The notes beneath the pieces are model-generated. The model had not been told where the DNA came from. It ran no database searches and was given only the letters and a program-made list of their open reading frames with translations. The position numbers were made by a program, and so were the translations under genes. 47,129 nucleotides of DNA from Candidatus Abyssobacteria bacterium SURF_5 (GTDB taxonomy: Bacteria; Abyssobacteria; SURF-5). Where the stretch lies: NCBI GenBank assembly GCA_003598085.1, contig QZKU01000047.1, positions 1 through 47,129 on the forward strand, given 5' to 3'. Each line of letters starts with the position of its first letter. Position 1 is the first letter of the stretch. Positions 16,976 to 45,856 of the stretch are shown piece by piece.

Positions 16976-18133
16976 TCATCTCTGGTTGAAGCGACGGCCC
17001 AGCATCGCGCCGGCGATGTTTATCCGCTGCATTTGGACGGTCCCGCCGGCCACCGGCCACCCGCGGCTGTCCCTCAGCATTCGCTCGATCGGGTATTCCT
17101 TCGAGTAGCCGTACCCGCCGAATACCTGCAGCGCCATATCTGTCACCTCTTTCGCCATCTCGTTGGCGAAACACTTGGCGACGGATGATTCAAATATCGA
17201 GGGCAGCCCCATCCCCGCATTCACCGCCGCCCGGTAAATCAGCAGTCTGGCCGCCTCGACCTTCATCGCCATATCCGCCAGAAGGAACTGAACGGCCTGG
17301 AATTCACATATCTGCTTGCCGAAAGCCGTCCGCTCCTGTGCGTATTTCTTCGCCGCTTCCAGCGCGCCCCACGCGATTCCGAGCGACTGCGTCGCATTTC
17401 CGCAGCGCTCCACGTCAAACGCCTGCATCAACATCGCGAACCCGCCCCCGGGAATTACCAGGTTCTCTTTCGGCACAATGCAATCTTCAAAAATCAAATC
17501 GCAGCTCGGGATGCCGCGAAGTCCCATAAATTCTTCCTGTTTGCCGAAGCTGAAACCCGGCGCCCCCTTCTCGATCACCAATCCGCCGATGCCCTTGTGC
17601 CCCTTCTTCTCGCTGAGCCGGACGTACACCATGTACCATTCTGAATGACCTCCGCCGGAGATAAACCGCTTTCGACCATTTACGACATAATGATCTCCCT
17701 CAAGCACGGCCCGCGTCGTCAGATCGGTCAGCGCCGAGCCGGCGCCCGGCTCCGTCATGCCGACCGCCATGAATTTTTCTCCTTTGCAGCACGGAGGGAT
17801 GAATCGCTCTTTCTGTTCTTCCGTGCCGAATTGCTCGACGACGCGAATTGGTCCGAAACTTGTCTCAAAGACCGGACCGGACGCGACGCAACTCACCCGC
17901 GCCAACTCCTCCATCGCCAGGATGGCGTCAAACGCCGTCAGCCCGCCGCCTCCGTATTTCTCGGGAAGCGTGATACCCAGCAGGCCGCGGTCCGCATATT
18001 CCTTTATAAGCGTCAAGTCCCTGACAAAACCTTCTCGCTCCCACGTATCGACCAGCGGAGCAAGCCGCTCGTCCGCAAAATCATGCACCATCTTCTTGAA
18101 AATTATCTGCTCCTCACTCAGTTGGAAATCCAT
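16976..18133 (-). CDS. Acyl-CoA dehydrogenase with relocated catalytic Glu
   Basis: 385 residues, the usual length. FAD and substrate motifs are visible: MAVGMTEPGAGSALTDL, then NGRKRFISGG and GGYGYSKEYPIERMLRD. In medium- and short-chain enzymes the catalytic base is the Glu of a YEGT motif near the C-terminus. Here that site is A-G363-G-T. A Glu is present instead at E242 (FDVER), the position used by isovaleryl-CoA and long-chain dehydrogenases. That suggests a branched or unusual acyl-CoA substrate. GGGAGG precedes the ATG and the acyl-CoA synthetase ends 18 bp upstream, so the two genes are probably co-transcribed: the acid would be activated, then dehydrogenated. It would pass electrons to ETF. 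Confidence 0.92.
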   Translation of the reverse strand: MDFQLSEEQIIFKKMVHDFADERLAPLVDTWEREGFVRDLTLIKEYADRGLLGITLPEKYGGGGLTAFDAILAMEELARVSCVASGPVFETSFGPIRVVEQFGTEEQKERFIPPCCKGEKFMAVGMTEPGAGSALTDLTTRAVLEGDHYVVNGRKRFISGGGHSEWYMVYVRLSEKKGHKGIGGLVIEKGAPGFSFGKQEEFMGLRGIPSCDLIFEDCIVPKENLVIPGGGFAMLMQAFDVERCGNATQSLGIAWGALEAAKKYAQERTAFGKQICEFQAVQFLLADMAMKVEAARLLIYRAAVNAGMGLPSIFESSVAKCFANEMAKEVTDMALQVFGGYGYSKEYPIERMLRDSRGWPVAGGTVQMQRINIAGAMLGRRFNQR

Positions 18134-18151: not shown

Positions 18152-19765
18152 TCACTGTTTATCTGGGCTTGCCGTTTCCCTGAATTGCTCGACCAGTTTG
18201 CTTTTCATTATTTTTCCGCCCGGATTCCTCGGCAGATCCGGCACGAGGAAAACCTTTCGCGGCATCTTGTAATCGGCAAGATGGCCGGCGCAAAATTCCC
18301 GTATCTCGTCCACGCCGATCGTTTCGACGTCCGGTCGAAGGATGACCGCGCATGCCACCGCACTGCCCATGACAGGGTCGGGCAGTCCGAAAACCGCCAC
18401 GTCGAGAATTTTCGGGTGGAGATGCAGAACGTTCTCCACCTCGACCGGATATACGTTCTCGCCGCCCCGATTGATCATCTCGCGCGTCCGCCCCACGATA
18501 AAAAGGAATCCGTCTTCATCCCGATACGCCATGTCGCCGGTGTGGAACCAGCCGTCGCGATACACCCTCGCCGTCTCCTCCGGCAACTTGTAATACCCCT
18601 TCGAAACAAGCGCGCCCCGCACCGCCAGTTCACCCACCGCATTCGGCCCCAATTCTTTCCCGTCAAGAAGATCAACGATCCTGACTTCCGAACACAAATT
18701 CGGTTGGCCTACCGACGTGGGATGAACTTCGCTGAAACGGTCATGGAGCGTGCTGATGACCGAGGCTTCCGTCAAGCCATATCCGTTCAGGCAGATCACG
18801 CCGGGAAAACTCTCCCTGATCTGCTTCAACAGGTCCGGCGGCATTGGCGCCCCGCCATACGTGATAATTCTGACGCTGTCGAGTTTGGCGTCGCGAACAG
18901 GCGTCTTGTTGAGAAGCAGCCAGTACATGGTCGGCGTTCCCGCCAGCACATTCACTCGCTCGCGGCTTAACAGTTCGACCACCTCCCACGGATTGAAGGA
19001 GGGAACGAGGATACAACTCCGGCCCAGAATCAAGGCCGACATTAATTGCTCCTGCAACGCCAACACGTGGAACAGGGGAGCAACCATCAACATCGTCTGC
19101 GCGCCGGATTCCTCCAAGCCGGAATATTGAGAGGTTATATGCATCGCCTTGAGAGCGCTGGTGATGATGTTCCGGTGAGTGATCATTACGCCTTTCGGCG
19201 TGCCCGCGGTCCCGGAAGTGAAGAGAACCAGAGCTGTGTCGTCTTCCGCTATTCCGTCCTGCGAATGCGCACCATCCCGTTTCGGAAGCTCATCCTGCCA
19301 ATTGTCCCCGAGCACGATTTGGCGAAAAGCCAAAGAGGCGGAATCGATCTCCTGCAGTTTCGGCGATAACAGCGGAGATGTGAGCAAAATCTTCAGGTCC
19401 GAAAATCGCAACTGCCGTTCCAGTTCGGCGGGCGCCAAACGAGTATTGAAAACAACCGAAGTCGCCCCCAGCTTCTGGATCGCCCAGAAAGAAATAACGA
19501 AGCGGAGGGAATTCTCCATCAGGATTCCGACGTGGTCGCCTTTTGCCGCCCCAACCTTTTCGAGGCGCGCAGCCATGCAGGCCGCCAATTCCGCCGTTTG
19601 CCGAAAGGTGAGGCGGGTCTGGCCCTCGATCAGAAAAATCTCGTTCTCGAAGGTAGCGGCGCATCTTGAAAACATTTCCCAAATAGTGCGGAAACGGTTT
19701 TTGAATGTTTGGATCGGATGCCCTGCGACCTCGACTGTTTCGACGGAAAAATCTTCGATTATCAT
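18152..19765 (-). CDS. AMP-forming acyl-CoA synthetase
   Basis: The ATG at 19765, with GGAAAGG 9 nt upstream, is preferred over an in-frame TTG at 19783; the product has 537 residues. The ANL-superfamily core motifs are in order: LVLFTSGTAGTPKGVMITH (about 181-199), NGYGLTEASV, HTGDMAYRDEDGFLFIVGR, and the C-terminal lysine motif NPGGKIMKSKL. The enzyme would make an acyl-adenylate and then the CoA thioester of a carboxylic acid. The chain type cannot be read. It lies 18 bp upstream of the acyl-CoA dehydrogenase and 73 bp downstream of the DUF6282 gene on the same strand, so it fits the activation step of the cluster. Confidence 0.93.
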   Translation of the reverse strand: MIIEDFSVETVEVAGHPIQTFKNRFRTIWEMFSRCAATFENEIFLIEGQTRLTFRQTAELAACMAARLEKVGAAKGDHVGILMENSLRFVISFWAIQKLGATSVVFNTRLAPAELERQLRFSDLKILLTSPLLSPKLQEIDSASLAFRQIVLGDNWQDELPKRDGAHSQDGIAEDDTALVLFTSGTAGTPKGVMITHRNIITSALKAMHITSQYSGLEESGAQTMLMVAPLFHVLALQEQLMSALILGRSCILVPSFNPWEVVELLSRERVNVLAGTPTMYWLLLNKTPVRDAKLDSVRIITYGGAPMPPDLLKQIRESFPGVICLNGYGLTEASVISTLHDRFSEVHPTSVGQPNLCSEVRIVDLLDGKELGPNAVGELAVRGALVSKGYYKLPEETARVYRDGWFHTGDMAYRDEDGFLFIVGRTREMINRGGENVYPVEVENVLHLHPKILDVAVFGLPDPVMGSAVACAVILRPDVETIGVDEIREFCAGHLADYKMPRKVFLVPDLPRNPGGKIMKSKLVEQFRETASPDKQ

Positions 19766-19838
19766 ATCTGCGCGCCTTTCCAAATTTTCTCAAACGTGCC
19801 CCGCTCGCGCCTCAATTGGATCGGGTGAACTTTCAATG

Positions 19839-20693
19839 CTACACCCCCAGCAGACGAGGCGGATTTTCGACCAGCATCGTTCTGATCTCGCCCCGGCTAA
19901 TGCCTTCCGTCATCAGAGCCTCGATGAAAGTCCGCATTCCTGCTACCGGATGCGGAAAAACCGACTGGCCCAGGTCGGTCACGAGAACACAACTTTCGGC
20001 GCCGATCGCCTTGATGCTCCCGGCCATTCTCTTGCCGCCGCCCTCCTGCGATAACAACATCGCGAGATAACATTTCTCCAGAACCGCGCCCTTTCTCGCC
20101 AGATCCACTTGTTGTTCAAGGGTCAACCCCACAAAAAACATGTCGGCGTGGGTGATCAGGATTTTCTCGACGCCTGCAGCCAGCGCGGCATCCGTCAAAA
20201 CAAGAATTTCGCGGGCTGAAAGATGACCCGTTCCCAATATGGCTTTGTTCTCCGCAATCTTTCGCAGAATCGGTCCAATCTCCGGCTTCAATCGACCGGC
20301 TTCATCGAGAACGCTCAGGCCGGCCAGCGCCGCTTCGGCTGCTGTGTCACTGTGCCCCCCGTAGTGGGAAAGGTGATTCTGAGAATCAAAAGTGGGGAAC
20401 CACACGAATTTGCCGCCCATCCTCAGCGCCGCATCTACGGCAGCCGCATTGAATCCGCCCACCGAGTGGTTTAAAACGACTCCGCCGCAGGCAGTAACCC
20501 CTTCCATTCTTGCGTTCACCAGTGCGGCGCGTCCGGCGGTCGGGCATTCATGCGCCTTTATCACCACCGCCCGCATGCCGGCTTCCTTCGCCTCGGCAGC
20601 CAGCCCGAAATCGTCCAGCGCCCGATCATACAGGCTCGGCCCGCTGTGAGTATGCAGATCAATCCCGCCTCTAAGCAGATTGTCGGTTGTCAT
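19839..20693 (-). CDS. DUF6282 metal-dependent hydrolase-like protein
   Basis: 284 residues. It starts IDLHTHSGPSLYDR, the HxH metal motif of amidohydrolase/PHP-type barrels. Further His and Asp ligands are probable at IKAHECPT, GTGHLSAREI, ILITHADM and VLVTDLGQ. A PTFDSQNHLSHYGGHSD stretch lies in the middle, and the end reads MLVENPPRLLGV, like the NPARLLG ending of amidohydrolases. The pattern matches the DUF6282 family, whose activity is not established. GGAGAAG precedes the ATG. It sits between the selenoprotein/FTR-like pair and the acyl-CoA synthetase. It may cleave a cyclic or amide intermediate before CoA activation, which is inference from position only. Confidence 0.75.
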   Translation of the reverse strand: MTTDNLLRGGIDLHTHSGPSLYDRALDDFGLAAEAKEAGMRAVVIKAHECPTAGRAALVNARMEGVTACGGVVLNHSVGGFNAAAVDAALRMGGKFVWFPTFDSQNHLSHYGGHSDTAAEAALAGLSVLDEAGRLKPEIGPILRKIAENKAILGTGHLSAREILVLTDAALAAGVEKILITHADMFFVGLTLEQQVDLARKGAVLEKCYLAMLLSQEGGGKRMAGSIKAIGAESCVLVTDLGQSVFPHPVAGMRTFIEALMTEGISRGEIRTMLVENPPRLLGV

Positions 20694-20707: not shown

Positions 20708-20736
20708 AATTGGGGACAGAGAATCTCCCCCTAATT
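20708..20736. repeat. GGGACAG-type REP-like hairpin
   Basis: AATTGGGG (20708-20715) pairs with CCCC...AATT (20727-20736), with a small bulge, around GACAGAG. It belongs to the same loose family as 22679-22703 and overlaps the stop codon of the FTR-like gene. It may protect or end mRNA segments inside the cluster. Confidence 0.4.
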
Positions 20737-21065
20737 TAGGCGGTCCTATCCTTCAATAGCCTTTCCGCCGCCGACTGCGTCATGAATAATCCGCAGTGAC
20801 AGCAGCCTTGCTCCTTGATTTGCGCGCGATGCTCCGCGCACGGACATACCGTCTTCTCAGCTTCCTGTGACATCTTAAGCAAATCATCCGTTACCACGTG
20901 GCACGAGCAAAAGGGGCGCCCATACCGCTCGAGATTGCGCGCCAAGCCGGCGAGAGTCGCCTCTTTGATGGACTCAATCGGATTCAGAAAATAGCCGGCT
21001 GCGCGGGCATGCTCTACCGCCATCTCTCGCACCTGAGCCAACGCCTTTGTATTCGGTTCGGCCAC
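20736..21065 (-). CDS. Ferredoxin:thioredoxin reductase catalytic-like Fe-S protein
   Basis: 109 residues with a GTG start. Three Cys pairs are visible: C53-S-C55, C74-P-C76 and C89-H-C91, ending CCHCGLF. This is the order of the plant/cyanobacterial FTR catalytic subunit (CPC, CPC, CHC), which holds a [4Fe-4S] cluster next to a redox disulfide and reduces disulfides one electron at a time. Differences: the first pair is CSC, and the spacings are 18 and 12 residues rather than 16 and 8. The start lies 1 nt after the selenoprotein stop, with the ribosome binding site (GGGAG) inside the selenoprotein's last codons, so the two are translationally coupled. It is a good candidate for the selenoprotein's reductant. 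Confidence 0.8.
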   Translation of the reverse strand: MAEPNTKALAQVREMAVEHARAAGYFLNPIESIKEATLAGLARNLERYGRPFCSCHVVTDDLLKMSQEAEKTVCPCAEHRAQIKEQGCCHCGLFMTQSAAERLLKDRTA

Positions 21066-21066
21066 T

Positions 21067-22662
21067 TCATACTCCCTTGGGACGAATCGCCCGCGTCACC
21101 GAATAGGTGATCCCGAACGTGGGAATCCACATCGAGTGTTTGCCGGGACCGCCGGCAACTATCACATTGATTGCGCCGGCCATCTGTGCCACCCGCAAGG
21201 TTCCGTCGGGTTCGACAAAGTCTTCTCTTCCGGCCTGTATATGGCTCAACTGTTCGGCCGACATCTTTCGCGTCGATACTCGCGCGTGCTCAAAGATATA
21301 TTCCTGGACATCTTTCTTGGAGAAGCCTCCCGCCGCTATTGTCGCGGCGTGCTCGGGCCCGAGGACCACGAACAGATCGCCCACTCTGTACAGATTGTTA
21401 TTGCCCGCGCTGCCAATCGCGCCGCAAATTGTGGTGAGAACCGCTTCCGCGGTCGTGCTGCCGTGGTCGTTGATGTTATGCGGCGGTTCCGCAGCCACGA
21501 CGGTGACTGTGCTCGCAGTTCGATCGAATCCCCGCTCGACATGCAGCGGCTCCCACGGGCTTTCCTCCTCGTTTTCGGCCATGCAGTAACTGTACTTGCC
21601 CGGATGCCCCATCGTAGCTTTGTCCAGTTCTCCCGGAATCCCGCCACCGACGTTTTGCATTGCGAGCCGGACCGCCCTGCCAATAACGGCATTCGCGCGA
21701 CTCCCCTGCCCAAAACAGTTGCCCTTGCTGTTAATTCCCAGCTCGCGAGCGAGGGGACCATTCACGATGATCAGCGGACTGCAGGGATGTGTCGTCGTCT
21801 GTATGCCGTACAGGTTGAACTGGTCCTCCATCATCGCCTCGACCGCGGCCAGCACCACCGGAAAATACGACGGCAGACAACCGGCCATCACGGTATTTGT
21901 GGCGATCTTCTCAACAGTTGCGGCGGCATAAACGGGCGGAAATTCGCCAAGCACCTCTTCCGGCTCCCTGCCGGCGGCAAGAAGCATTGCCTCCACTCGC
22001 TCGCGCGTCGGCGGTATCACTGGAAGACCATCGGTCCAGCCTTTGCCGTAAAAGAATTCCTGCTGTGCGTCTGCGTCACCGCTGATACTGAACTGTCGGG
22101 GTAAATCCGAGGCGGTTGCATCGGCATTCCGCGCCTCATGTCGGGTTACGTATTCGGTAATATTCTGAAAAGCCTTGCCCGCCAGCATTGTCACGTCCGA
22201 TTCGCTTCGCCCGCCGAGCGGATGCGGTATGACCGCAAGCGGAATGTCGGGCATCCCGAGCGCTCTCGCCTCGGCCGCCGCCAGTGGACGGAACTGGTCG
22301 GTCACGAGGGAAATGGTCGGGATGCCTTTCTTCTCGAAAGAGACGGAGTCGTGGATACTCCACGACGTGCACGACCCTCAGTCGCCGACGCCGCAGATCA
22401 CCAGATCGGCCGCATCGGCCGCCTCCTGAAGGTATTCTTCAGGAGCCGCGAATGCAGCGTTCTCCTTTCCTTTCCTCACGGTCTTCGTGGCGGGGTACTT
22501 TGCGGCGAACATCTTCACCAGATTGTCAAACAGGAGATTCACGTTGGGCTTTGCATTGCCAAAAAACACAACGGTCTTTCCCGCCAGATTCTTTTGGCGG
22601 CCCGCCAGCGTCTGTTTCTCCGCCGTTACTTCCCCAACGGGATTCAGCACTTCCACTTTCAT
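21067..22662 (-). CDS. UGSC-family selenoprotein (in-frame UGA = selenocysteine 95)
   Basis: The minus strand is open from the ATG at 22662 to 22381. It meets a single TGA at 22378-22380 and continues in the same frame to a second TGA at 21067-21069, giving 531 residues. Around the first TGA the protein reads LVICGVGD-U-GSCTSWSIHD, the U-G-S-C motif that names the UGSC family of selenoproteins known from metagenomes. A conventional reading would give a 94-residue protein and a second one starting at a GTG with no ribosome binding site; coding signal continues across the 72 bp between. A hairpin of SECIS type follows the UGA. The C-terminal domain has further conserved-looking Cys (AGCLPSYFP, HPCSPLI, GNCFGQG, YSYCMAEN). 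It is probably a thiol/selenol redox enzyme with unknown substrate. It needs SelA/B/C/D from elsewhere in the genome. Confidence 0.88.
22348..22366 (-). promoter_or_regulatory. Candidate bacterial SECIS hairpin
   Basis: Beginning 11 nt after the UGA on the mRNA, GUCGUGG pairs perfectly with CCACGAC around the 5-nt loop AGUAU. The loop starts 18 nt after the UGA and has a G among its first two bases. Both match what is known of bacterial SECIS elements recognised by SelB. The hairpin lies inside the coding sequence, as bacterial SECIS elements do. Confidence 0.7.
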
Positions 22663-22938: not shown

Positions 22939-23340
22939 TCAGTTATTCGCGCCGACATGCTGATTGATGACGCCGACAATCTCGCCGATATCCGTGCCCG
23001 ATGTGAAAACGCCGGTGACGCCCATCTCCTTGAGCACCGGAATATCGGCCTCGGGAATGACTCCGCCGACCAGAATGATGACGTCCTCGATGCCTTCTTC
23101 CTTAAGCTTGTTTATGACGCGCCTGGTCAGCGGTACGTGCGCTCCGGAGAGAATGGACAGGCCGATGACCTTGACGTCCTCCTGGATCGCGGTGCTCACG
23201 ATCTTTTCCGGTGTCTGCCGGATGCCAAGGTAGATCACCTCGAAACCGGCGTCGCGCAGGCCATACGCAATCACCTTCGAGCCGCGGTCGTGCCCGTCAA
23301 GTCCTATCTTTGATATGAGAACTCTGACCTTATTCTCCAT
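22939..23340 (-). CDS. Acyl-CoA mutase B12-binding (small) subunit
   Basis: 133 residues from the ATG at 23340 (GAAGGAG 6 nt upstream), better than an in-frame ATG at 23355. It is the stand-alone cobalamin domain: KVRVLISKIGLDGHDRGSK contains DxHxxG, whose His replaces the dimethylbenzimidazole ligand of adenosylcobalamin. GLSILSGAH and IILVGGVIP supply the rest of the nucleotide-loop pocket. It pairs with the large subunit at 25221-26969 to form a radical carbon-skeleton mutase. The two genes are separated by the radical SAM/PDZ gene, which ends 11 bp before this start. Confidence 0.93.
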   Translation of the reverse strand: MENKVRVLISKIGLDGHDRGSKVIAYGLRDAGFEVIYLGIRQTPEKIVSTAIQEDVKVIGLSILSGAHVPLTRRVINKLKEEGIEDVIILVGGVIPEADIPVLKEMGVTGVFTSGTDIGEIVGVINQHVGANN

Positions 23341-23351
23341 CGTCGTCTCCT

Positions 23352-25199
23352 TCAATCAAATATGGGATCACATTCGACCAATCTCACCGGAATCTTCAGA
23401 GCCCGTTCAATATCCAGATAAACCCGCCCTGTCAGGTCTCTCCCCCATCGGCTGAGATGGAACGGGGATGTGGGAATGACAACGAGGCCGGGCCGTATCC
23501 TCTCTTCTTTAACAAACGTCTCGGCCGCTCGGATGAAATCCTCGACCACCATCAGGTCGCCCATAAAAATGTTTCCCCCAAAGAAATCGTTTTTGGGGAT
23601 GCGGATATGCAGCTTCACGCCGGAGAAGCTGCCGTTGTGCGCCAAGAGCCGCTCCAAAGCGGGGCGCACAAGCTTTGAGGTCAGCAGCAGCACCTCCCTC
23701 GCCCCGTGACTGACGATTACATCTTTAACCTTCGCTACCCATTCATGGGGAATGCCTGAAGACGCAAACACGATTCCCAGGTGTGTCGCTGTCCTCGGCG
23801 TGTAAGGATACTCGTAATCCTGCAAGCCGACCGTCACATCAAGCAGATTTCCGTTCCGCTCAATCAAAACAGCAGTCTCCTTGAGGTCGCTTTGATGGAC
23901 AGTCGTCAAGAGCGACCGCACCTGCGGGCGCGTGCTCACGGGAAGACCGTTCACCCGGACGATACGGTCGCCGCGACGGATGCCCGCCCGGCAGGCGGGA
24001 GAATTTTTCATCACACCGTGCACGAGCGGATCATTCGGCGCCGCGGGATCATCGAATTCCTCGAACAATCCCGGACGAATCACCAGCGGGCAGTCGACCA
24101 TGTTCCTCAGTTCTCCTGCCTCGGCTCTGAGTTCGGTCCACACCTCATCAAGAGGAAACGCTGCTTTCTCATGTAAGGAGCGCGCGCAGCCGGGCAGGCT
24201 GATCTGGATGAGAGTGGGATCAAATGACGCCGCGAAAGCAACCGTTTCCCGCAAGTCCTCCAACATCTCTTTCCGCGACGGGAATGGCCACGGCACGATT
24301 ACGACGGAGAACGGAATCTTTCCGGCTTTCAGACGTGCGAGCGACCCAATTGCTACCTGGGGCGAAGGATCATTCATCAGCCAACTTCGCCTCTCCGTCG
24401 ACGACGAGTTAAGTGATACATCCAATAAAACCGGCTTGACTTCCGCCAGGATTCCCACCATGGCCGGCGTCAACGCCGCGCCGTTGGTCGGGATGCGGAA
24501 AACCTCTGTGGTTTTGGCACGCAGTTGCCGCAATATACCCTCAATCCTGGGATGAGCAAGCATTTCCTTCGGGCTGCCCATGTTCGGAAATATGTTTAAT
24601 TTGCCGTTCGGCGCGTAGTGCTTGATGCGAGCCTCCACGTGCCGGTACTCAACTTCAGGATCGGCCGGCTTCAATGACAGGGCGGGAGGCGCATCGCTGT
24701 TATAGCAAAACCGGCAATGCAGGTTGCACCGGGACGCCGCATGAGCCAGGATATCATTGGCGCCGCCGCCGGGTGTAAGCCACTGGGGCGGATGCTTCAG
24801 CCGAAAACCATCAACGTCCACCGGCTTTCCGCCCGACTCCAGTTGCACCACCTCCATCAGCGATTCCAGCATCCTCTTGATGTACCCGATGCGAGGCTCG
24901 TACAATTCCAAAGGATCAGAGGCACAGCCGTTCCTGTCCGCGTGAACCCGATCGACACGTTGCACGATCTGCCGCTCGCTCAGAAGCTTGTATCCGTCAA
25001 CGCTCAGCTCGCGGCCTCCCCCCGTCGGGATCAGTAAATCGAGCAGCTCGCTCAAGTGTCGGCCCAGGAGATCGCTCGGACTGCACAAATGATTGCCCGA
25101 AGGATTCAGGGAAAACCTGAGGATGTCGTCGTCTTTGGTCATAAAAAATGGTTTGATGTCCAACGTATCCGACATGTCCGACCAGTCGGACGCGTCCAT
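23352..25199 (-). CDS. Radical SAM protein with internal PDZ domain
   Basis: 615 residues. The radical SAM motif is C158-NLH-C162-RF-C165-Y, preceded by about 150 residues of unknown fold. A PDZ domain follows the barrel at about 385-450 (GVMKNSPACRAGIRRGDRIV, then VNGLPV). The C-terminal 170 residues contain IPKNDFFGGNIFMGDLMVV and are reminiscent of the DUF512-type tail of other PDZ/radical SAM proteins, although the domain order differs. The ATG has GAGGGG 11 nt upstream, and the first residues (DASDWSDMSD) come from a short repeat, so the true start might be later. It lies between the two mutase subunit genes, with gaps of 21 and 11 bp. Inferred role: modification or repair linked to the mutase or its substrate. 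No activity is known. Confidence 0.85.
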   Translation of the reverse strand: MDASDWSDMSDTLDIKPFFMTKDDDILRFSLNPSGNHLCSPSDLLGRHLSELLDLLIPTGGGRELSVDGYKLLSERQIVQRVDRVHADRNGCASDPLELYEPRIGYIKRMLESLMEVVQLESGGKPVDVDGFRLKHPPQWLTPGGGANDILAHAASRCNLHCRFCYNSDAPPALSLKPADPEVEYRHVEARIKHYAPNGKLNIFPNMGSPKEMLAHPRIEGILRQLRAKTTEVFRIPTNGAALTPAMVGILAEVKPVLLDVSLNSSSTERRSWLMNDPSPQVAIGSLARLKAGKIPFSVVIVPWPFPSRKEMLEDLRETVAFAASFDPTLIQISLPGCARSLHEKAAFPLDEVWTELRAEAGELRNMVDCPLVIRPGLFEEFDDPAAPNDPLVHGVMKNSPACRAGIRRGDRIVRVNGLPVSTRPQVRSLLTTVHQSDLKETAVLIERNGNLLDVTVGLQDYEYPYTPRTATHLGIVFASSGIPHEWVAKVKDVIVSHGAREVLLLTSKLVRPALERLLAHNGSFSGVKLHIRIPKNDFFGGNIFMGDLMVVEDFIRAAETFVKEERIRPGLVVIPTSPFHLSRWGRDLTGRVYLDIERALKIPVRLVECDPIFD

Positions 25200-25220: not shown

Positions 25221-26969
25221 CTACAATATCGACGCTGGCTCGTATTCGCCAAACACGCCGCGGAGAACGTCGCACACTTCCTGAATGGTGACATAAGCCT
25301 TGGCGCATTTCACCAAGTGCGGCGCCAGATTAACAGCCTCCTGCCGGGCCTGCTCATCCAACTCCTTCAACAGTCGTTCGACCTCTGCGTTGTCGCGGCT
25401 TCTCTTCACTTCCGTCAGTGCGGCAATCTGCTCGTCTTCAGCGCGCTCGCGCCGTTTCGGGTCATACGGATGAGGCACCAGACGTGTTGTCTCGACCTCG
25501 AGCTCGTTTTCGCCCGTAAAGCAATTGACCCCAACCACCAGCTTCTGTCCGGAACTGACCGCCTTTTGACGCTCGTATGCGCTCTTGGCGATCTGTCTCT
25601 GCATGTAGCCTTTCTCGATCGCCGCGACGGCGCCGCCCAGATCCTCCACCTTCTTCAGCTCTTCCCACGCTTCGGCTTCGATCTCGTCGGTCAGCGCCTC
25701 CATGCAATATGAGCCGGCAAATGGATCCTCCACGTCGAGCAGTCTCGCCTCGCAGATGAGTATCCGGCCGGCATCCTGCATAAGCTGTTGCGCTTCGAGG
25801 CTCCATCCCAGCCCGAGCGGTTCGTCATACGGCGGAAATGGAGCCGCCGTTCCGCCCGAAAGCGCTCCCATCACGGCGCCCATGACGGCGCGCGTCAGAT
25901 TGTTGAGCGGGCGCTGAATGGTCGTGTCCGACGGCCCGATGTGAGCGGTTATCGGCTGCCTGATCACCATGCTTCGCTGATCCTTTGCGCCGAATCTTTC
26001 TTTCACGATTTTCGCATACATGCGCCGGGCCGCTCGCTGGAAGGCGATCTCGTGCAGAAATTCCATGCTGCCGCCGAACGCGTTGAAGGTGAACCGCGGA
26101 GCGAAGGCGTCCACCTCGAGGCCCGCGTTCACGCCCTCCTGCAAATAGGCGATCGCATTCGCCATGCTGTAGGCGAGGTCCTGCACGCGAGTGGCGCCCG
26201 CCTCTCGAATATGATAGCCGCCCATGCTGGTGATGTTTACATGCGGCATATGCTCGTTGATGAAAACAAGCGTGTCGCGAAACAGCCGCATCGCCGGCTT
26301 CGGCGGAAATATGTACGTGCCGCGCGCTATGTATTCCTTCAGGATGTCATTCTGCGGCGTCGCCCTCAGTTTATTGAGAGGCACTCCCCTCTTTTCGGCC
26401 AGTGCCGCATACATCGCGATCAGATAGATGGCGGGCGCGTTGATCGTGAAGTTCGAGGCGATGCGGTCCAGATTCAAATCGCCCTGATACGGCTCGTAAA
26501 TGACTTCGAGGTCCCGAAGCGTATCGATCGAAACCCCGACTTTTCCGACTTCACCGGCCACCAGCGAGTTGTCCGAGTCGTACCCGCACTGCGTCGGCAG
26601 GTCCATAGCGAGGTTGGGTCCCTGCTTGCCGCCTCTGTCGATCAGGCTCTTGTAATAGTCGCGCGTGTCCTCCGGCTTGCCGTAACCCGAATATAAAGCC
26701 GCCCGCGTCGTGGCCGCGCCCGCCGGTGCTATGGCGGCGAATTTCGAGAGGCCGGCCATCGGGTCAAATGGATACGCTCCGGCGGTAAAAGGATACTGGC
26801 CCGGAAAGCCCACTTTCTCGATAAAATCGAAATCATCTTTCATGTCAAGCGGCGTATAAAAGCGGCTCGGACATTCACTCAAAAGCGGAAACCTCTTGAG
26901 CGCCTTCTCAACGCACGCCGCCTTCCATTCCTGTTCCTTTTTCTTGATCTCTTCTTTGCGCTCCTCCAT
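25221..26969 (-). CDS. Divergent adenosylcobalamin-dependent acyl-CoA mutase, large subunit
   Basis: 582 residues from the ATG at 26969 (AGGAG 8 nt upstream). The family TIM barrel is clear: FPGQYPFTAGAYP, then AMDLPTQCGYDSD, PQNDILKEYIARGTYIFPP, and GGYHIREAGA. By alignment from memory, Q206, R216 and H253 match Gln197, Arg207 and His244 of methylmalonyl-CoA mutase. Arg207 binds the substrate carboxylate, so a dicarboxylic acyl-CoA is possible. The loop that carries Tyr89 (TMYR..PWT) is replaced by a longer Ala/Gly-rich stretch at 68-92, with no equivalent Tyr. The substrate therefore probably differs from methylmalonyl-CoA. The small subunit is separate. No MeaB-type chaperone is nearby. 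It follows the GntR gene by 10 bp. Confidence 0.92.
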   Translation of the reverse strand: MEERKEEIKKKEQEWKAACVEKALKRFPLLSECPSRFYTPLDMKDDFDFIEKVGFPGQYPFTAGAYPFDPMAGLSKFAAIAPAGAATTRAALYSGYGKPEDTRDYYKSLIDRGGKQGPNLAMDLPTQCGYDSDNSLVAGEVGKVGVSIDTLRDLEVIYEPYQGDLNLDRIASNFTINAPAIYLIAMYAALAEKRGVPLNKLRATPQNDILKEYIARGTYIFPPKPAMRLFRDTLVFINEHMPHVNITSMGGYHIREAGATRVQDLAYSMANAIAYLQEGVNAGLEVDAFAPRFTFNAFGGSMEFLHEIAFQRAARRMYAKIVKERFGAKDQRSMVIRQPITAHIGPSDTTIQRPLNNLTRAVMGAVMGALSGGTAAPFPPYDEPLGLGWSLEAQQLMQDAGRILICEARLLDVEDPFAGSYCMEALTDEIEAEAWEELKKVEDLGGAVAAIEKGYMQRQIAKSAYERQKAVSSGQKLVVGVNCFTGENELEVETTRLVPHPYDPKRRERAEDEQIAALTEVKRSRDNAEVERLLKELDEQARQEAVNLAPHLVKCAKAYVTIQEVCDVLRGVFGEYEPASIL

Positions 26970-26979
26970 GGCAGATCTC

Positions 26980-27744
26980 CTATCTTTTATGCAAATGGGA
27001 AGAGTCCTGTTGCGTAACCCTTTCAAGTATTGTGATCGGGCCGTAAGCGTCTCCCGGCAAGTGCGTCTCAGACACCTGAACCGCCCTGTCCAAAGCCGTG
27101 AAAAAGATGCGCCTCAACACCAGGATCGGATGACCGACTCCAACACCCATCGCCGATTCATGTTCTGCGGCGGCTACTTTCGCGCAGATGGTCTGATGCG
27201 CTCGCGTGACCCTCTGCAGCGACGCCTCCTCTACCGCGGCAATAAAGAACGGACTACTGAAATTCCCCAGCGTGATCTTTTCACCGATATCCCCGGGAAC
27301 CCATGCCCGGAACAAACCCTTGAACTGCATCTCATCAAAAGATCGAATCCCCTCGAAGAAGTACACTTCCTCATCTTCGTCCAGATGCATCTCTTCGGCC
27401 AGTTGGTTATCGACCTTCATCAGGGTTCTTGTGTGCAGTTCGAGCGTCGTCTTCGAGCCGAACAGAAAAAGGTCGTCCATGAATCCATACGCCACAAATA
27501 AATCGTCCCGCCCATTCCTCTCATTTATGAAGGTGCCGCGGCCCTGCTCTCTGACGAGCAGGCCGTCCCGCTCCAAAATCATGAGCGCCTGCCGGACGGT
27601 GGCCCGGCTGACACCGTACTCCTCGCACAGCTCCCGCTCATTCGGAAACGCCTGCACGCCGTTCTTGCGGTTCGAAAGGATTCGCTTGCGCAGCGCCCGC
27701 TCAAGCTGATAATAAAGGGGTATCGGCCCTTTTTTCAGTTTCAT
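26980..27744 (-). CDS. GntR-family regulator with UTRA ligand domain
   Basis: 253 residues from the ATG at 27744 (AGGAGAAG upstream); a longer frame to 27891 has no support. The winged helix is at 5-75 (IPLYYQLERALRKRIL, ERELCEEYGVSRATVRQALM, REQGRGTFI). A UTRA domain of the HutC subfamily follows. These repressors release DNA when they bind a small effector, often the substrate of the operon they head. It is the first gene of the minus-strand cluster and lies 10 bp before the mutase gene, so it probably controls itself and the genes downstream. Confidence 0.9.
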   Translation of the reverse strand: MKLKKGPIPLYYQLERALRKRILSNRKNGVQAFPNERELCEEYGVSRATVRQALMILERDGLLVREQGRGTFINERNGRDDLFVAYGFMDDLFLFGSKTTLELHTRTLMKVDNQLAEEMHLDEDEEVYFFEGIRSFDEMQFKGLFRAWVPGDIGEKITLGNFSSPFFIAAVEEASLQRVTRAHQTICAKVAAAEHESAMGVGVGHPILVLRRIFFTALDRAVQVSETHLPGDAYGPITILERVTQQDSSHLHKR

Positions 27745-42430: not shown

Positions 42431-45400
42431 ATGAAACTATGTTTTTGCCCCCGCCAGACAGTCTCTGAGCAAGCCCCCATAATGATAGATGCTTCGCCCT
42501 TGGTGGGTTCCCGCTTTGGATCGCTTCGCCTGATCGGATCACAAGTGAACGCGAGCAGAAAAACCGGGTGCATACCTGTCGCGGCCGTGAGACTGAGGCC
42601 GGGTGTCATTCCGGCTCTTACGCTGGTTATGGTCCTTTTCCTGTCAACAGCGGCCGCAGGAGAAATCCTTCACGTACCGGATAATTTCCCAACCATTCAG
42701 TCCGCTTTGGACGCGGCGACGGACGGCGATACCGTAATCCTCAGCGACGGTCTATACTCAGGCATCGGGAATAAAAACCTGAGCTTTCAGGGAAAGGCAA
42801 TCCTTCTGCGTTCGCAGAACGGGCCAATCACTTGCGTTATCGACTGCGAGAACGACGGAAGAGCTTTTCTCTTCAACAAGGGCGAATCAGCGGCATCGGT
42901 TGTAGATGGTCTCACGATCACCCGGGGTTCCATCTTCGGCGGCGGCGGTGCTATTTATTGCTATAGATCGTCTCCAACGATTTCCAACTGCGTCATCACC
43001 GGGAACTCCTCCAGCGGTTTTGGCGGCGCCATCGCTTGCGCTTACTCCTCATTTCCCTCGATACACAATTGCGAAATCAGCGGTAATTCCTCTTCGCTGG
43101 GCGGCGCAATCTATTGCAGCGCATCTTCCTCGCCGCATATCAGCGGGAGCACGATAAGCGATAATTCGGCGGATTCCGGTGGAGCCATTTACAGCAGGAC
43201 GGCTGCCCCCAGCATCACAAATTCCATTTTGTGGAATAATTCGGCCGCTGCAGGAAGTGAAATCGCGCTTGCAGTTGACTCAACCCTTGACGTTGATTTC
43301 TGTGATGTTGAAGGCGGAGAGGCGGCGGTATCCGCAGAGGACGGCTCTAGCCTCATTTGGGGGGCAAACAATATCGATTCCGACCCTGTGTTCGTGGATG
43401 CGCGGCAGGGAAATTATCGGTTGGGTTACGGCAGCGAATGCATAAACTCCGGAACGACCAACGGCTCCGTCGCTGACGGCTTTACGGATATGGGAGTGTA
43501 TCCCGCGGTGACCGCGGACGACGAGCCGGGCCAGAATCATGCAACCATCGGAGCTGCCCTGGCAGATCTGGCCTTCATTGACGCATGGGGCGGTTCCGTC
43601 GTGGTCTTCCCGGGCCGCTATTTTGAAGACATCTCCATCAGAGAAGGGATAGACCTCATCGGCGCCGGTCCGCACCAATCGATAATCGAGGCGCCGAAAG
43701 GGATTTCCTGCATCGGCATAGGGAGCGCGCATATCAGCGGTTTTATGATACGCGATGCGATAGACGGAATCACGATTGACGCTTCCTCGCCGGTTATCTC
43801 GAATAACGTTTTCACCGGCTGCGTGAATTCCGCTCTTACCTGCAAAGCTTCGTCCAGTCCAACCATAAGAAATAATACGATCGATAAGATTGCCGGCGGC
43901 GGCATCATCATCGGCCCGGGCGCCTCTCCCGTCATGGTTAACAACATCATTTCCAATACCGTACGCGGGATCACTGCGACAGGGGGAGACGGCTTTCGAA
44001 TCGACTACAACAATCTGTATAACGTATCCGAACCTTACTCCGGCTGCTCAGCCGGCCCGCATGACATCGCGGCGGACCCAATGTTCATCGATTCGGCAGC
44101 CAACGATTATCGTCTCAACAAATGCTCGTTCGCCATTGATGCGGGGGACGCGGTCGAGGCGTTGACGATGGACTATCTGGCGTTGAGTCTGGAGATATAC
44201 GTCAACGAGGTGACCAATATCAGCACGGGAGACATTATCTGGATAACCGACGGCGTGAATATCGAAAACGCAACTGTCGCCGGGTTTGACGCAGACTTGA
44301 TCTACATCGAAAACGGTTTCGAGAACAGTTACCGCGCGGCCGACGGAGCGTATGTCGCTTCTCGATTTTCGATCTATTCGACCGAGCCCGCCCCAGACGG
44401 AGGCAGAGTCAATATGGGAGCATATGGCGGCGCCCCGGAGGCCGCAACCAGCGAATCTGTAACGGATGACGACGGCGACGCCTGCTCCGAGTGTGAGAGC
44501 GATTGCGATGACGCGAATGGACAGGTTTATCCCGGCGCCCAGGAGACATGCAACAGCATCGATGATGACTGCGACGGCCTCGTGGACCTCAATGACCCGG
44601 ACTGCACCGGCCTCATCTATTACTACAATGACAGCGACCAGGACGGCTACGGCGTCGACGGCGATACGCGGCAACGCTGCGCGCCAGAGTCTCCGTACAC
44701 TGCCACGAGCGCCGGCGATTGTGATGACGCGAATGAAAACATCAATCCCGGAATTCAGGAAATATGCAATGGGATCGACGACGACTGCGACATGCTTGTT
44801 GACGCAGAAGACCCGGACACCATCGAAGCCGGCACCTACTACAGGGACGACGACGATGACGGCTACGGCGTCGACGGCGACATGCAACGACTCTGTGCGC
44901 CGCAGGCTCCCTATACCGCCCTGGAAGCAGGTGATTGCGATGACGAAAATATTCAAATCAATCCCGGCTCGCAGGAGATATGCAACGGCGCAGACGACGA
45001 CTGCGACAGCCGTATCGATGATGACGATGACAACTGTATCGGACTCAGCAGCTACTATAAGGATGAAGACGAGGACGGCCATGGCGTGGAGGGCGAGCTG
45101 CAACAGCGGTGTGACCCGGAATATCCCTACACCGCGCTGGTAGGCGACGATTGTGATGATACGGCCTCGACCGTGTATCCCGGGGCTCTCGAAACCGCCT
45201 GTGACGGAATCGATCAGGATTGCGACGGAAGCGATTCGTGTTCCTGCCGGATCATTGCGGAAAATGCCGCAGTTTCAGGTGGAAATCTTGTCCGCGTGCC
45301 GGTGCGGCTCGAGACCGCCTGCAATATCGTGGATGCATTCAGCTTCGATTTCGATTATTCGGAATGTCATCTCTTGGGCTACCTGTCGTTTACCGGAAAC

Positions 45401-45856
45401 TACACGCGCGGCGACCTGACTGCTAACTGGGATTATATCGACGCATGGGAGGTCTCCGCCGGCGTGGTGCGCGTTGCAGGTCTCACTCTGAATGATATAA
45501 TCCTCGAGGGAGAAAGAGGCGTACTCGTTGAATTGGAATTTGAATTGCTGCAGTGCACGCCCGATGACACCTGCAGCAATGCTCTCACAAATCTCGCCAG
45601 TGACATAAACGGGTGGGGCGTCGTTCCCGGCACATTCGAGTGCGACTGCCCGTCTGACGGCGATGTGAATGGCGACGGACAGGCGACCCCCGGCGACGCG
45701 CTCCTCGCATTTCAGCATTATCTGGGGACAGTTCAACTGACGCCATGCGAAGCCGAGCATGCAGATGTGGACGGAGACGCGCTCGTCAGCCTCTCAGACT
45801 CACTGTGCATATTCCAGTGCTATATGGGAAACCCGTGTCCCGAACTCTGCCCATGA
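42431..45856 (+). CDS. Exported beta-helix / MopE-repeat / cohesin / dockerin protein
   Basis: The frame is open from 42431. The signal peptide, however, begins at a GTG at 42587 (VRLRPGVIPALTLVMVLFLS...), which is probably the real start despite a weak ribosome binding site. In 42431 numbering, a right-handed beta-helix runs from about 90 to 640 (repeated GGAIYC, SPTISNC, NSSSGFGGAI). Four exact 72-residue MopE-like putative metal-binding repeats follow at about 690-935 (DCDDAN...PG.QE.CNG.DDDCD). A cohesin-like domain lies at about 940-1070 (NIVDAFSFDFDYS, FTGNYTRGDL) and a dockerin at 1076-1140, with two DxNGDG/DxDGDA calcium loops. It is a large secreted surface protein that can bind partners through cohesin-dockerin pairs. 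It is followed after 54 bp by a second cohesin gene. Confidence 0.87.
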   Translation: MKLCFCPRQTVSEQAPIMIDASPLVGSRFGSLRLIGSQVNASRKTGCIPVAAVRLRPGVIPALTLVMVLFLSTAAAGEILHVPDNFPTIQSALDAATDGDTVILSDGLYSGIGNKNLSFQGKAILLRSQNGPITCVIDCENDGRAFLFNKGESAASVVDGLTITRGSIFGGGGAIYCYRSSPTISNCVITGNSSSGFGGAIACAYSSFPSIHNCEISGNSSSLGGAIYCSASSSPHISGSTISDNSADSGGAIYSRTAAPSITNSILWNNSAAAGSEIALAVDSTLDVDFCDVEGGEAAVSAEDGSSLIWGANNIDSDPVFVDARQGNYRLGYGSECINSGTTNGSVADGFTDMGVYPAVTADDEPGQNHATIGAALADLAFIDAWGGSVVVFPGRYFEDISIREGIDLIGAGPHQSIIEAPKGISCIGIGSAHISGFMIRDAIDGITIDASSPVISNNVFTGCVNSALTCKASSSPTIRNNTIDKIAGGGIIIGPGASPVMVNNIISNTVRGITATGGDGFRIDYNNLYNVSEPYSGCSAGPHDIAADPMFIDSAANDYRLNKCSFAIDAGDAVEALTMDYLALSLEIYVNEVTNISTGDIIWITDGVNIENATVAGFDADLIYIENGFENSYRAADGAYVASRFSIYSTEPAPDGGRVNMGAYGGAPEAATSESVTDDDGDACSECESDCDDANGQVYPGAQETCNSIDDDCDGLVDLNDPDCTGLIYYYNDSDQDGYGVDGDTRQRCAPESPYTATSAGDCDDANENINPGIQEICNGIDDDCDMLVDAEDPDTIEAGTYYRDDDDDGYGVDGDMQRLCAPQAPYTALEAGDCDDENIQINPGSQEICNGADDDCDSRIDDDDDNCIGLSSYYKDEDEDGHGVEGELQQRCDPEYPYTALVGDDCDDTASTVYPGALETACDGIDQDCDGSDSCSCRIIAENAAVSGGNLVRVPVRLETACNIVDAFSFDFDYSECHLLGYLSFTGNYTRGDLTANWDYIDAWEVSAGVVRVAGLTLNDIILEGERGVLVELEFELLQCTPDDTCSNALTNLASDINGWGVVPGTFECDCPSDGDVNGDGQATPGDALLAFQHYLGTVQLTPCEAEHADVDGDALVSLSDSLCIFQCYMGNPCPELCP
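44501..45250 (+). repeat. Four MopE-like repeats at exact 216-bp spacing
   Basis: The DCDD motif begins at 44501, 44717, 44933 and 45149, exactly 216 bp apart each time. The units differ at many silent and replacement sites, so the length is conserved by selection rather than by recent copying. Confidence 0.8.

What the first reader, a model, noticed from the sequence alone, without database searches (positions are those of the whole stretch)
21067..22662. UGSC-type selenoprotein gene split by an in-frame UGA
The sequence shows one continuous minus-strand frame broken only by the TGA at 22378-22380, with the motif GD-U-GSCT around it. UGSC is a selenoprotein family known from metagenomes with no assigned reaction. 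A standard gene caller would report two proteins, the second starting at an unsupported GTG. The stop at the end is also TGA, so decoding must depend on the local RNA structure.
Basis: partly seen in the sequence, partly recalled or inferred. Interest (0 to 1): 0.85.

Follow-up and report, generated by a model that had tools for sequence, protein, structure and literature searches.

The report
Selenoenzyme related to glycine reductase
The gene is a real selenocysteine-containing protein of the known UGSC family; comparison suggests its active site is a distant cousin of glycine reductase, giving this family of unknown function its first testable reaction type, and one groundwater bacterium turns out to carry about 150 copies.

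Summary
Minus 22662-21067 is one frame broken only by TGA 22380-22378. It is UGSC (PF24696; NF041046 above cut-off) fused to a ~340-aa domain with no Pfam family. The genome has selA, selB, selD and tRNA-Sec(TCA). Outside one expanded genome, 45 homologues have Sec 33, Cys 11, Met 1 at this site. A SECIS hairpin follows the UGA and covaries in relatives; the terminal TGA has none. The UGSC family and a 'UGSC/Unknown_1' fusion were published in 2008, so this gene is a new member of a known kind. New here, as inference: (1) the UGSC profile matches the C-terminal half of glycine reductase GrdB (hhalign 96-97%, Sec on Sec; reversed control 1%), and the predicted fold is flavodoxin-like, not thioredoxin-like as proposed; (2) the second domain is often a separate adjacent gene, beside thioredoxin reductase elsewhere and FtrB here, with DUF6282 and CoA-metabolism genes. 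Best explanation: a two-part Sec reductase recycled by ferredoxin or thioredoxin, feeding a CoA pathway; substrate unknown. In passing: a Chloroflexi MAG carries 152 distinct UGSC domains with UGA at the Sec site; the published selenoproteome maximum is 63.

The parts
21067..22662 (-). UGSC + C-terminal-domain fusion selenoprotein gene, 531 aa with Sec95; stop TGA 21069-21067
22144..22653 (-). UGSC domain (PF24696), residues 4-173; predicted flavodoxin-like alpha/beta fold; profile-related to the GrdB C-terminal half
22378..22380 (-). in-frame UGA = Sec95 (U95-G-S-C98)
22348..22366 (-). SECIS-like hairpin, 8 bp with GUA loop, 14-32 nt after the UGA (GUCGUGGA-GUA-UCCACGAC)
21082..22095 (-). C-terminal domain (about residues 190-527), no Pfam family; separate adjacent gene in many genomes; likely the 'Unknown_1' of PMC2398784
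21877..21879 (-). Cys262 of the C-terminal domain, Cys in 138 of 142 aligned domains
20736..21065 (-). FtrB, ferredoxin:thioredoxin reductase catalytic chain; GTG start 1 nt after the UGSC stop
19839..20693 (-). DUF6282 protein; also beside UGSC genes in haloarchaea and a Chloroflexi MAG
18152..19783 (-). AMP-dependent acyl-CoA ligase
16976..18133 (-). acyl-CoA dehydrogenase
22939..23355 (-). B12-binding subunit, methylmalonyl-CoA mutase type
23352..25199 (-). radical SAM + PDZ protein between the mutase subunits
25221..27026 (-). methylmalonyl-CoA-mutase-type large subunit; a 51% identical homologue lies in UGSC-gene stretch L140

Best explanation
A selenoprotein of the UGSC family fused to its partner domain, acting as a GrdB-like reductase. 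Shown by sequence: UGA95 is read as Sec, the Sec machinery is present and a SECIS follows. Supported by profile comparison: the UGSC domain shares ancestry with the Sec-bearing C-terminal half of GrdB, with the same U-G-x-C-T motif and spacing. Inferred: Sec95 attacks a polarised bond (C-N or another C-heteroatom bond) of a small carboxylate held with the C-terminal domain (Cys262); Sec95 and Cys98 close to a selenylsulfide; a disulfide reductase reopens it (FtrB with ferredoxin here, TrxB/Trx elsewhere); the product goes on through CoA ligase, acyl-CoA dehydrogenase and B12 mutase.
For: Family, frame, machinery. Sec/Cys exchange: 128. SECIS: 109, 111. GrdB link: hhalign local 95.6-95.7%, global 96.7-97.2%, C95 aligned with the GrdB Sec; reversed GrdB 1.0%, C-domain 0.1%. 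Two-part system, fused or adjacent genes: 28, 29, 33-36, 54, 55, 100, 101. Reductant genes: TrxB-like near UGSC in Arthrobacter, Roseovarius, Variovorax SRS16, Haloterrigena and Chloroflexi L046, TrxA in Arthrobacter, FtrB here. CoA metabolism and importers: 5, 28-34, 98, 100, 101, 115. GrdB-type proteins are proposed to serve substrates beyond amino acids: monofluoroacetate operon (PMC10838667, 118).
Against: hhalign E-values are for a single pair, not a database; the local match is 77 columns. UGSC members give no Pfam GRDB hit even at E 10, and the N-terminal half of GrdB is absent. No substrate or activity is known. Homologues are common in presumably aerobic haloarchaea and proteobacteria, where a Stickland-type role is not expected. 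FtrB follows only in the window among the loci held.
Confidence: 0.55

Rival explanations
1. UGSC is a generic thiol oxidoreductase with a thioredoxin-like fold, as suggested in 2008; its partner domain is only a fusion passenger.
For: U-x-x-C motif; opinion in PMC2398784; Trx/TrxB/FtrB neighbours.
Against: The predicted fold is a five-strand alternating alpha/beta flavodoxin-like domain; profile match to GrdB; the partner domain is repeatedly adjacent as well as fused, with catabolic CoA and transport genes.
Confidence: 0.2
2. Sec-assisted detoxification module (organometal or electrophile removal), with UGSC and FtrB working as in FtrB double-selenoprotein systems.
For: FtrB directly downstream; weak similarity to the FtrB_double_U model.
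Against: 48 bits against a cut-off of 160; the FtrB here is a Cys protein; the other neighbours are CoA catabolism genes.
Confidence: 0.08
3. The TGA is a true stop, a pseudogene lesion or an assembly error.
For: Gene callers would see two ORFs.
Against: Same TGA in many relatives, covarying SECIS, full Sec machinery.
Confidence: 0.02
4. The C-terminal domain is the enzyme (weak fold resemblance to class I fumarase) and UGSC only supplies or carries electrons or sulfur for it.
For: The domain also occurs without an adjacent UGSC gene (Haladaptatus, neighbouring genes only); Foldseek's first 22 hits are class I fumarases.
Against: Best E 3e-3, TM to query 0.22-0.27, rmsd about 17 A; only one Cys strictly conserved, so no obvious Fe-S ligand set.
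Confidence: 0.15

Closest known systems
UGSC family (PF24696, NF041046)
   Same: Profile, U-G-S-C motif, Sec/Cys exchange; a fusion to a domain 'Unknown_1' already reported (PMC2398784)
   Different: FtrB, DUF6282, ligase, dehydrogenase and mutase context described here; the paper's supplementary alignment was not seen, so identity of Unknown_1 is not checked
Glycine reductase selenoprotein B GrdB (PF07355) and D-proline reductase PrdB
   Same: U-G-[TS]-C-T, 18 residues from Sec to the G-I-P-T motif, HP[LV]G segment near the end, Trx-linked operons
   Different: Lacks the N-terminal ~190 residues of GrdB; partner domain has no GrdE/PrdA hit in Pfam; no GrdA/C/D seen near it
FtrB double-selenoprotein systems (NF041072)
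   Same: FtrB next to a selenoprotein gene
   Different: FtrB here has Cys and scores far below the cut-off

Membership tests
UGSC family | Profile score above curated cut-off | tested here: met
   PF24696 161.8 vs 25 bits; NF041046 132.9 vs 125
UGSC family | U/C-G-S-C motif with Cys homologues | tested here: met
   33 U, 11 C, 1 M of 45
UGSC family | Sec machinery in the genome | tested here: met
   selB 381 bits, selA 588 bits, selD 388 bits, tRNA-Sec 67.5 bits with TCA
Bacterial SECIS | Stem-loop shortly after UGA, G in the apical loop, helix kept by compensatory change | tested here: met
   8-bp hairpin, loop GUA at +22; MFE -18.3 here; mean -16.6 at the UGA against -9.3 to -14.7 at 30 nt or more away in 152 genes; in 24 other genes 86% paired against 75% shuffled, slid versions at most 56%
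GrdB/PrdB | PF07355 domain hit | tested here: not met
   No GRDB hit among UGSC members up to E 10
GrdB/PrdB | Homologous Sec-bearing segment | tested here: met
   hhalign 95.6-97.2%, Sec aligned to Sec, reversed control 1.0%
GrdB/PrdB | Pyruvoyl partner GrdE/PrdA and protein A/C | tested here: inconclusive
   C-domain has no Pfam hit to glycine reductase; genome-wide grdACDE not searched
Thioredoxin fold | Trx-like fold | tested here: not met
   AF2 model alternates five strands and helices; Foldseek hits include azoreductase, flavodiiron core, lumazine synthase; model confidence moderate
FtrB double-selenoprotein (NF041072) | Score above cut-off, two Sec | tested here: not met
   48.1 vs 160 bits, Cys only
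Any of the above | Selenium in the purified protein | not testable with these tools
   needs protein

The most novel reading that the evidence does not exclude
UGSC plus its partner domain is a separate, widespread class of GrdB-derived selenoreductase with interchangeable substrate specificity; one Chloroflexi lineage has multiplied it to about 150 Sec copies, mostly beside dipeptide-type ABC binding proteins, making the largest selenoproteome known.
Probability: 0.4. Interest if true: 0.85.

Novelty: new member of a known kind. Interest (0 to 1): 0.55.

Why it matters
UGSC has been listed since 2008 as one of the most abundant aquatic selenoprotein families, without a reaction. A link to GrdB, a constant partner domain and Trx/FtrB neighbours turn it into a testable reductase. 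The expanded genome would more than double the published maximum of selenoprotein genes and shows that annotation that reads UGA as stop hides most of them.

Tried and rejected
Rfam found nothing in the window at gathering thresholds. No phage or viral-contig homologue. No convincing PDB sequence relative of UGSC, the C-domain or GrdB. The C-domain gave no Pfam family and no relation to UGSC or GrdB. The short GrdB-like alignment was first queried with a fragment from the wrong half of GrdB and redone (93.7%). A global TGA reassignment in the expanded MAG was rejected: TGA ends 34 of 125 C-domain genes there. Strain duplication was largely rejected: nearest-neighbour identity has median 70%, only 3 of 152 at 90% or more. 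The other two genomes of the window's phylum have no homologue. The 83-nt fold around the UGA taken alone is not exceptional (z -0.6); the position-specific and covariation tests are what count.

Full report
Observation. Reading window 22662-21067 on the minus strand with TGA as a residue gives 531 residues with a single internal TGA at 22380-22378 (residue 95) in GVGD-U-GSCTSW and a terminal TGA. With table 11 the second ORF would start at GTG 22305. PF24696 (UGSC) matches residues 4-173 across the TGA with E 2.3e-47, and NF041046 'UGSC family (seleno)protein' passes its cut-off. It is the only UGSC gene of this 98.5% complete, 5.1 Mb genome. The genome belongs to a phylum of which only three genomes are held; the other two have no match.

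Sec decoding. selB (381 bits) and selA (588 bits) are adjacent on contig C41, selD on C42 itself carries one TGA, and tRNA-Sec on C101 scores 67.5 bits with anticodon TCA. In 45 UGSC homologues outside one expanded genome (the window's gene included), the site is Sec in 33, Cys in 11 and Met in one degenerate Vibrio copy. After the UGA a perfect 8-bp hairpin GUCGUGGA-GUA-UCCACGAC lies at +14 to +32. Over 152 UGSC genes of a Chloroflexi MAG, folding of 45-nt windows is strongest at the UGA (mean -16.6 to -16.9 kcal/mol, against -9.3 to -14.7 at distances of 30 nt or more). In 24 other genes the six inner pairs stay paired in 92-100% of sequences, with changes on both sides (for example CGGCC-AGUGU-GGCCG, CGUGC-AGUGU-GCACG, CGUGG-AGUAU-CCACG); all eight pairs average 86% against a shuffled mean of 75%. 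These sequences are related, so the shuffles are not a probability. The terminal TGA region folds no better than chance.

Two parts. Residues 190-527 form a second domain without a Pfam family or a PDB sequence relative. In haloarchaeal, actinobacterial and proteobacterial plasmids, and in Chloroflexi, the same domain is either fused or a separate gene directly beside UGSC, in either order. Among 142 such domains Cys262 is kept in 138, with G261, G302, P303, N324, R329, E363, W370 and K449 nearly invariant. The 2008 GOS paper already reported a UGSC fusion to a domain 'Unknown_1'; it is probably the same domain, but its supplementary alignment was not available here.

What it works like. I built a UGSC profile and a profile of GrdB proteins taken from Chloroflexi genomes. 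hhalign gave 95.7% locally and 97.2% globally with the Sec columns aligned; after removing a fragment, 95.6% and 96.7%; reversed GrdB gave 1.0%, the C-domain 0.1%, and the short GrdB-like family 93.7%. The spacing from U to the G-I-P-T motif is identical (18 residues: UGSCTSWSIHDSVSFEKKGIPT here, UGTCTRCGATMAKEIERAGIPT in GrdB). The E-values are for one pair, and no single UGSC member hits the Pfam GRDB model, so this is remote homology of the active-site segment, not membership in GrdB. The AlphaFold2 model (mean pLDDT 75.7) shows five alternating strands and helices for UGSC, with Sec at the start of the helix after strand 3, and Foldseek hits include azoreductase, flavodiiron core and lumazine synthase. 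That disagrees with the thioredoxin-like fold assumed in 2008. The C-domain model (pTM 0.79) has only weak resemblance to class I fumarase (best E 3e-3, TM 0.22-0.27), a lead at most.

Context. In the window the next gene, 1 nt after the stop, is FtrB, then DUF6282, an acyl-CoA ligase and an acyl-CoA dehydrogenase; upstream, beyond a 276-bp gap, lie B12 mutase subunits around a radical SAM/PDZ gene. Elsewhere TrxB-like genes lie beside or near UGSC in Arthrobacter (with TrxA), Roseovarius, Variovorax, Haloterrigena and a Chloroflexi genome. DUF6282 recurs near UGSC in Natrinema, Halorientalis and the Chloroflexi MAG, and mutase homologues occur in three stretches of that MAG fetched for their UGSC modules or C-domain genes, one 51% identical to the window's. 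CoA-transferases, CoA lyases and TRAP or tricarboxylate transporters are common neighbours. So a disulfide reductase of one kind or another and CoA metabolism often accompany the module. GrdB-type enzymes have been proposed to act even on monofluoroacetate (PMC10838667). I therefore propose a Sec reductase recycled by Fd/FtrB or NADPH/TrxB/Trx. The recycling and the bond cleaved are inferred, not shown.

In passing. A search of the MAG behind L018-L020 (JACPQD01, groundwater Chloroflexi) gave 165 matches, with only 150 of 258 candidates scored. I fetched 806 kb of it and found 152 distinct UGSC domains with TGA at the Sec column, none with Cys, motifs UGSC 60, UGGC 32, UGAC 31, UGTC 22. Nearest-neighbour identity has a median of 70% and only 3 reach 90%. 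TGA is a genuine stop there too. selB and a TGA-containing selD are present, but no tRNA-Sec passed the cut-off in the MAG (the best hit is tRNA-Ser) and selA was not searched. 58 of 80 stretches hold an ORF of the cluster represented by SBP_bac_5. The recent review gives 63 as the upper bound for a bacterium (PMC13188914). MAG chimerism remains the main caveat.

Verdict. The gene is a well-supported member of a known selenoprotein family. What is of interest is the remote GrdB link, the partner domain and the reductase context, which make the family's function testable, and the expansion in the Chloroflexi MAG.

Noticed in passing
L018-L020, L037-L042, L054, L076-L095, L100-L159 (Chloroflexi MAG JACPQD01, handle G003): 152 distinct UGSC-family domains with in-frame TGA at the Sec site in one MAG, none with Cys; published bacterial selenoproteome maximum is 63. 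tRNA-Sec not found in the MAG.
   Followed up: partly
L077, L079, L111, L127, L128, L153, L155, L156: ORFs of a cluster whose representative is a pyruvate-formate-lyase-like protein (glycyl radical enzyme family) near UGSC modules in the same MAG; most stretches also have family-5 solute-binding proteins.
   Followed up: partly
L197, L198 (Paracoccus plasmids), L025 (Acidovorax IncP plasmid p2-T1): Sec-type UGSC genes on plasmids, unannotated or annotated as broken hypothetical proteins; selB lies nearby in Paracoccus ferrooxidans, and IS1071 near the Acidovorax copy.
   Followed up: no
window 23352-25199: Radical SAM protein with PDZ domain encoded between the two methylmalonyl-CoA-mutase-type subunits; possibly an activator, function unknown.
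   Followed up: no
L184, L189 and similar short loci: Short proteins matching the C-terminal part of GrdB are common in Chloroflexi and also relate to UGSC by profile.
   Followed up: partly
window 42431-45856: Large protein with beta-helix/NosD repeats, MopE-type metal-binding motifs and a dockerin domain.
   Followed up: no
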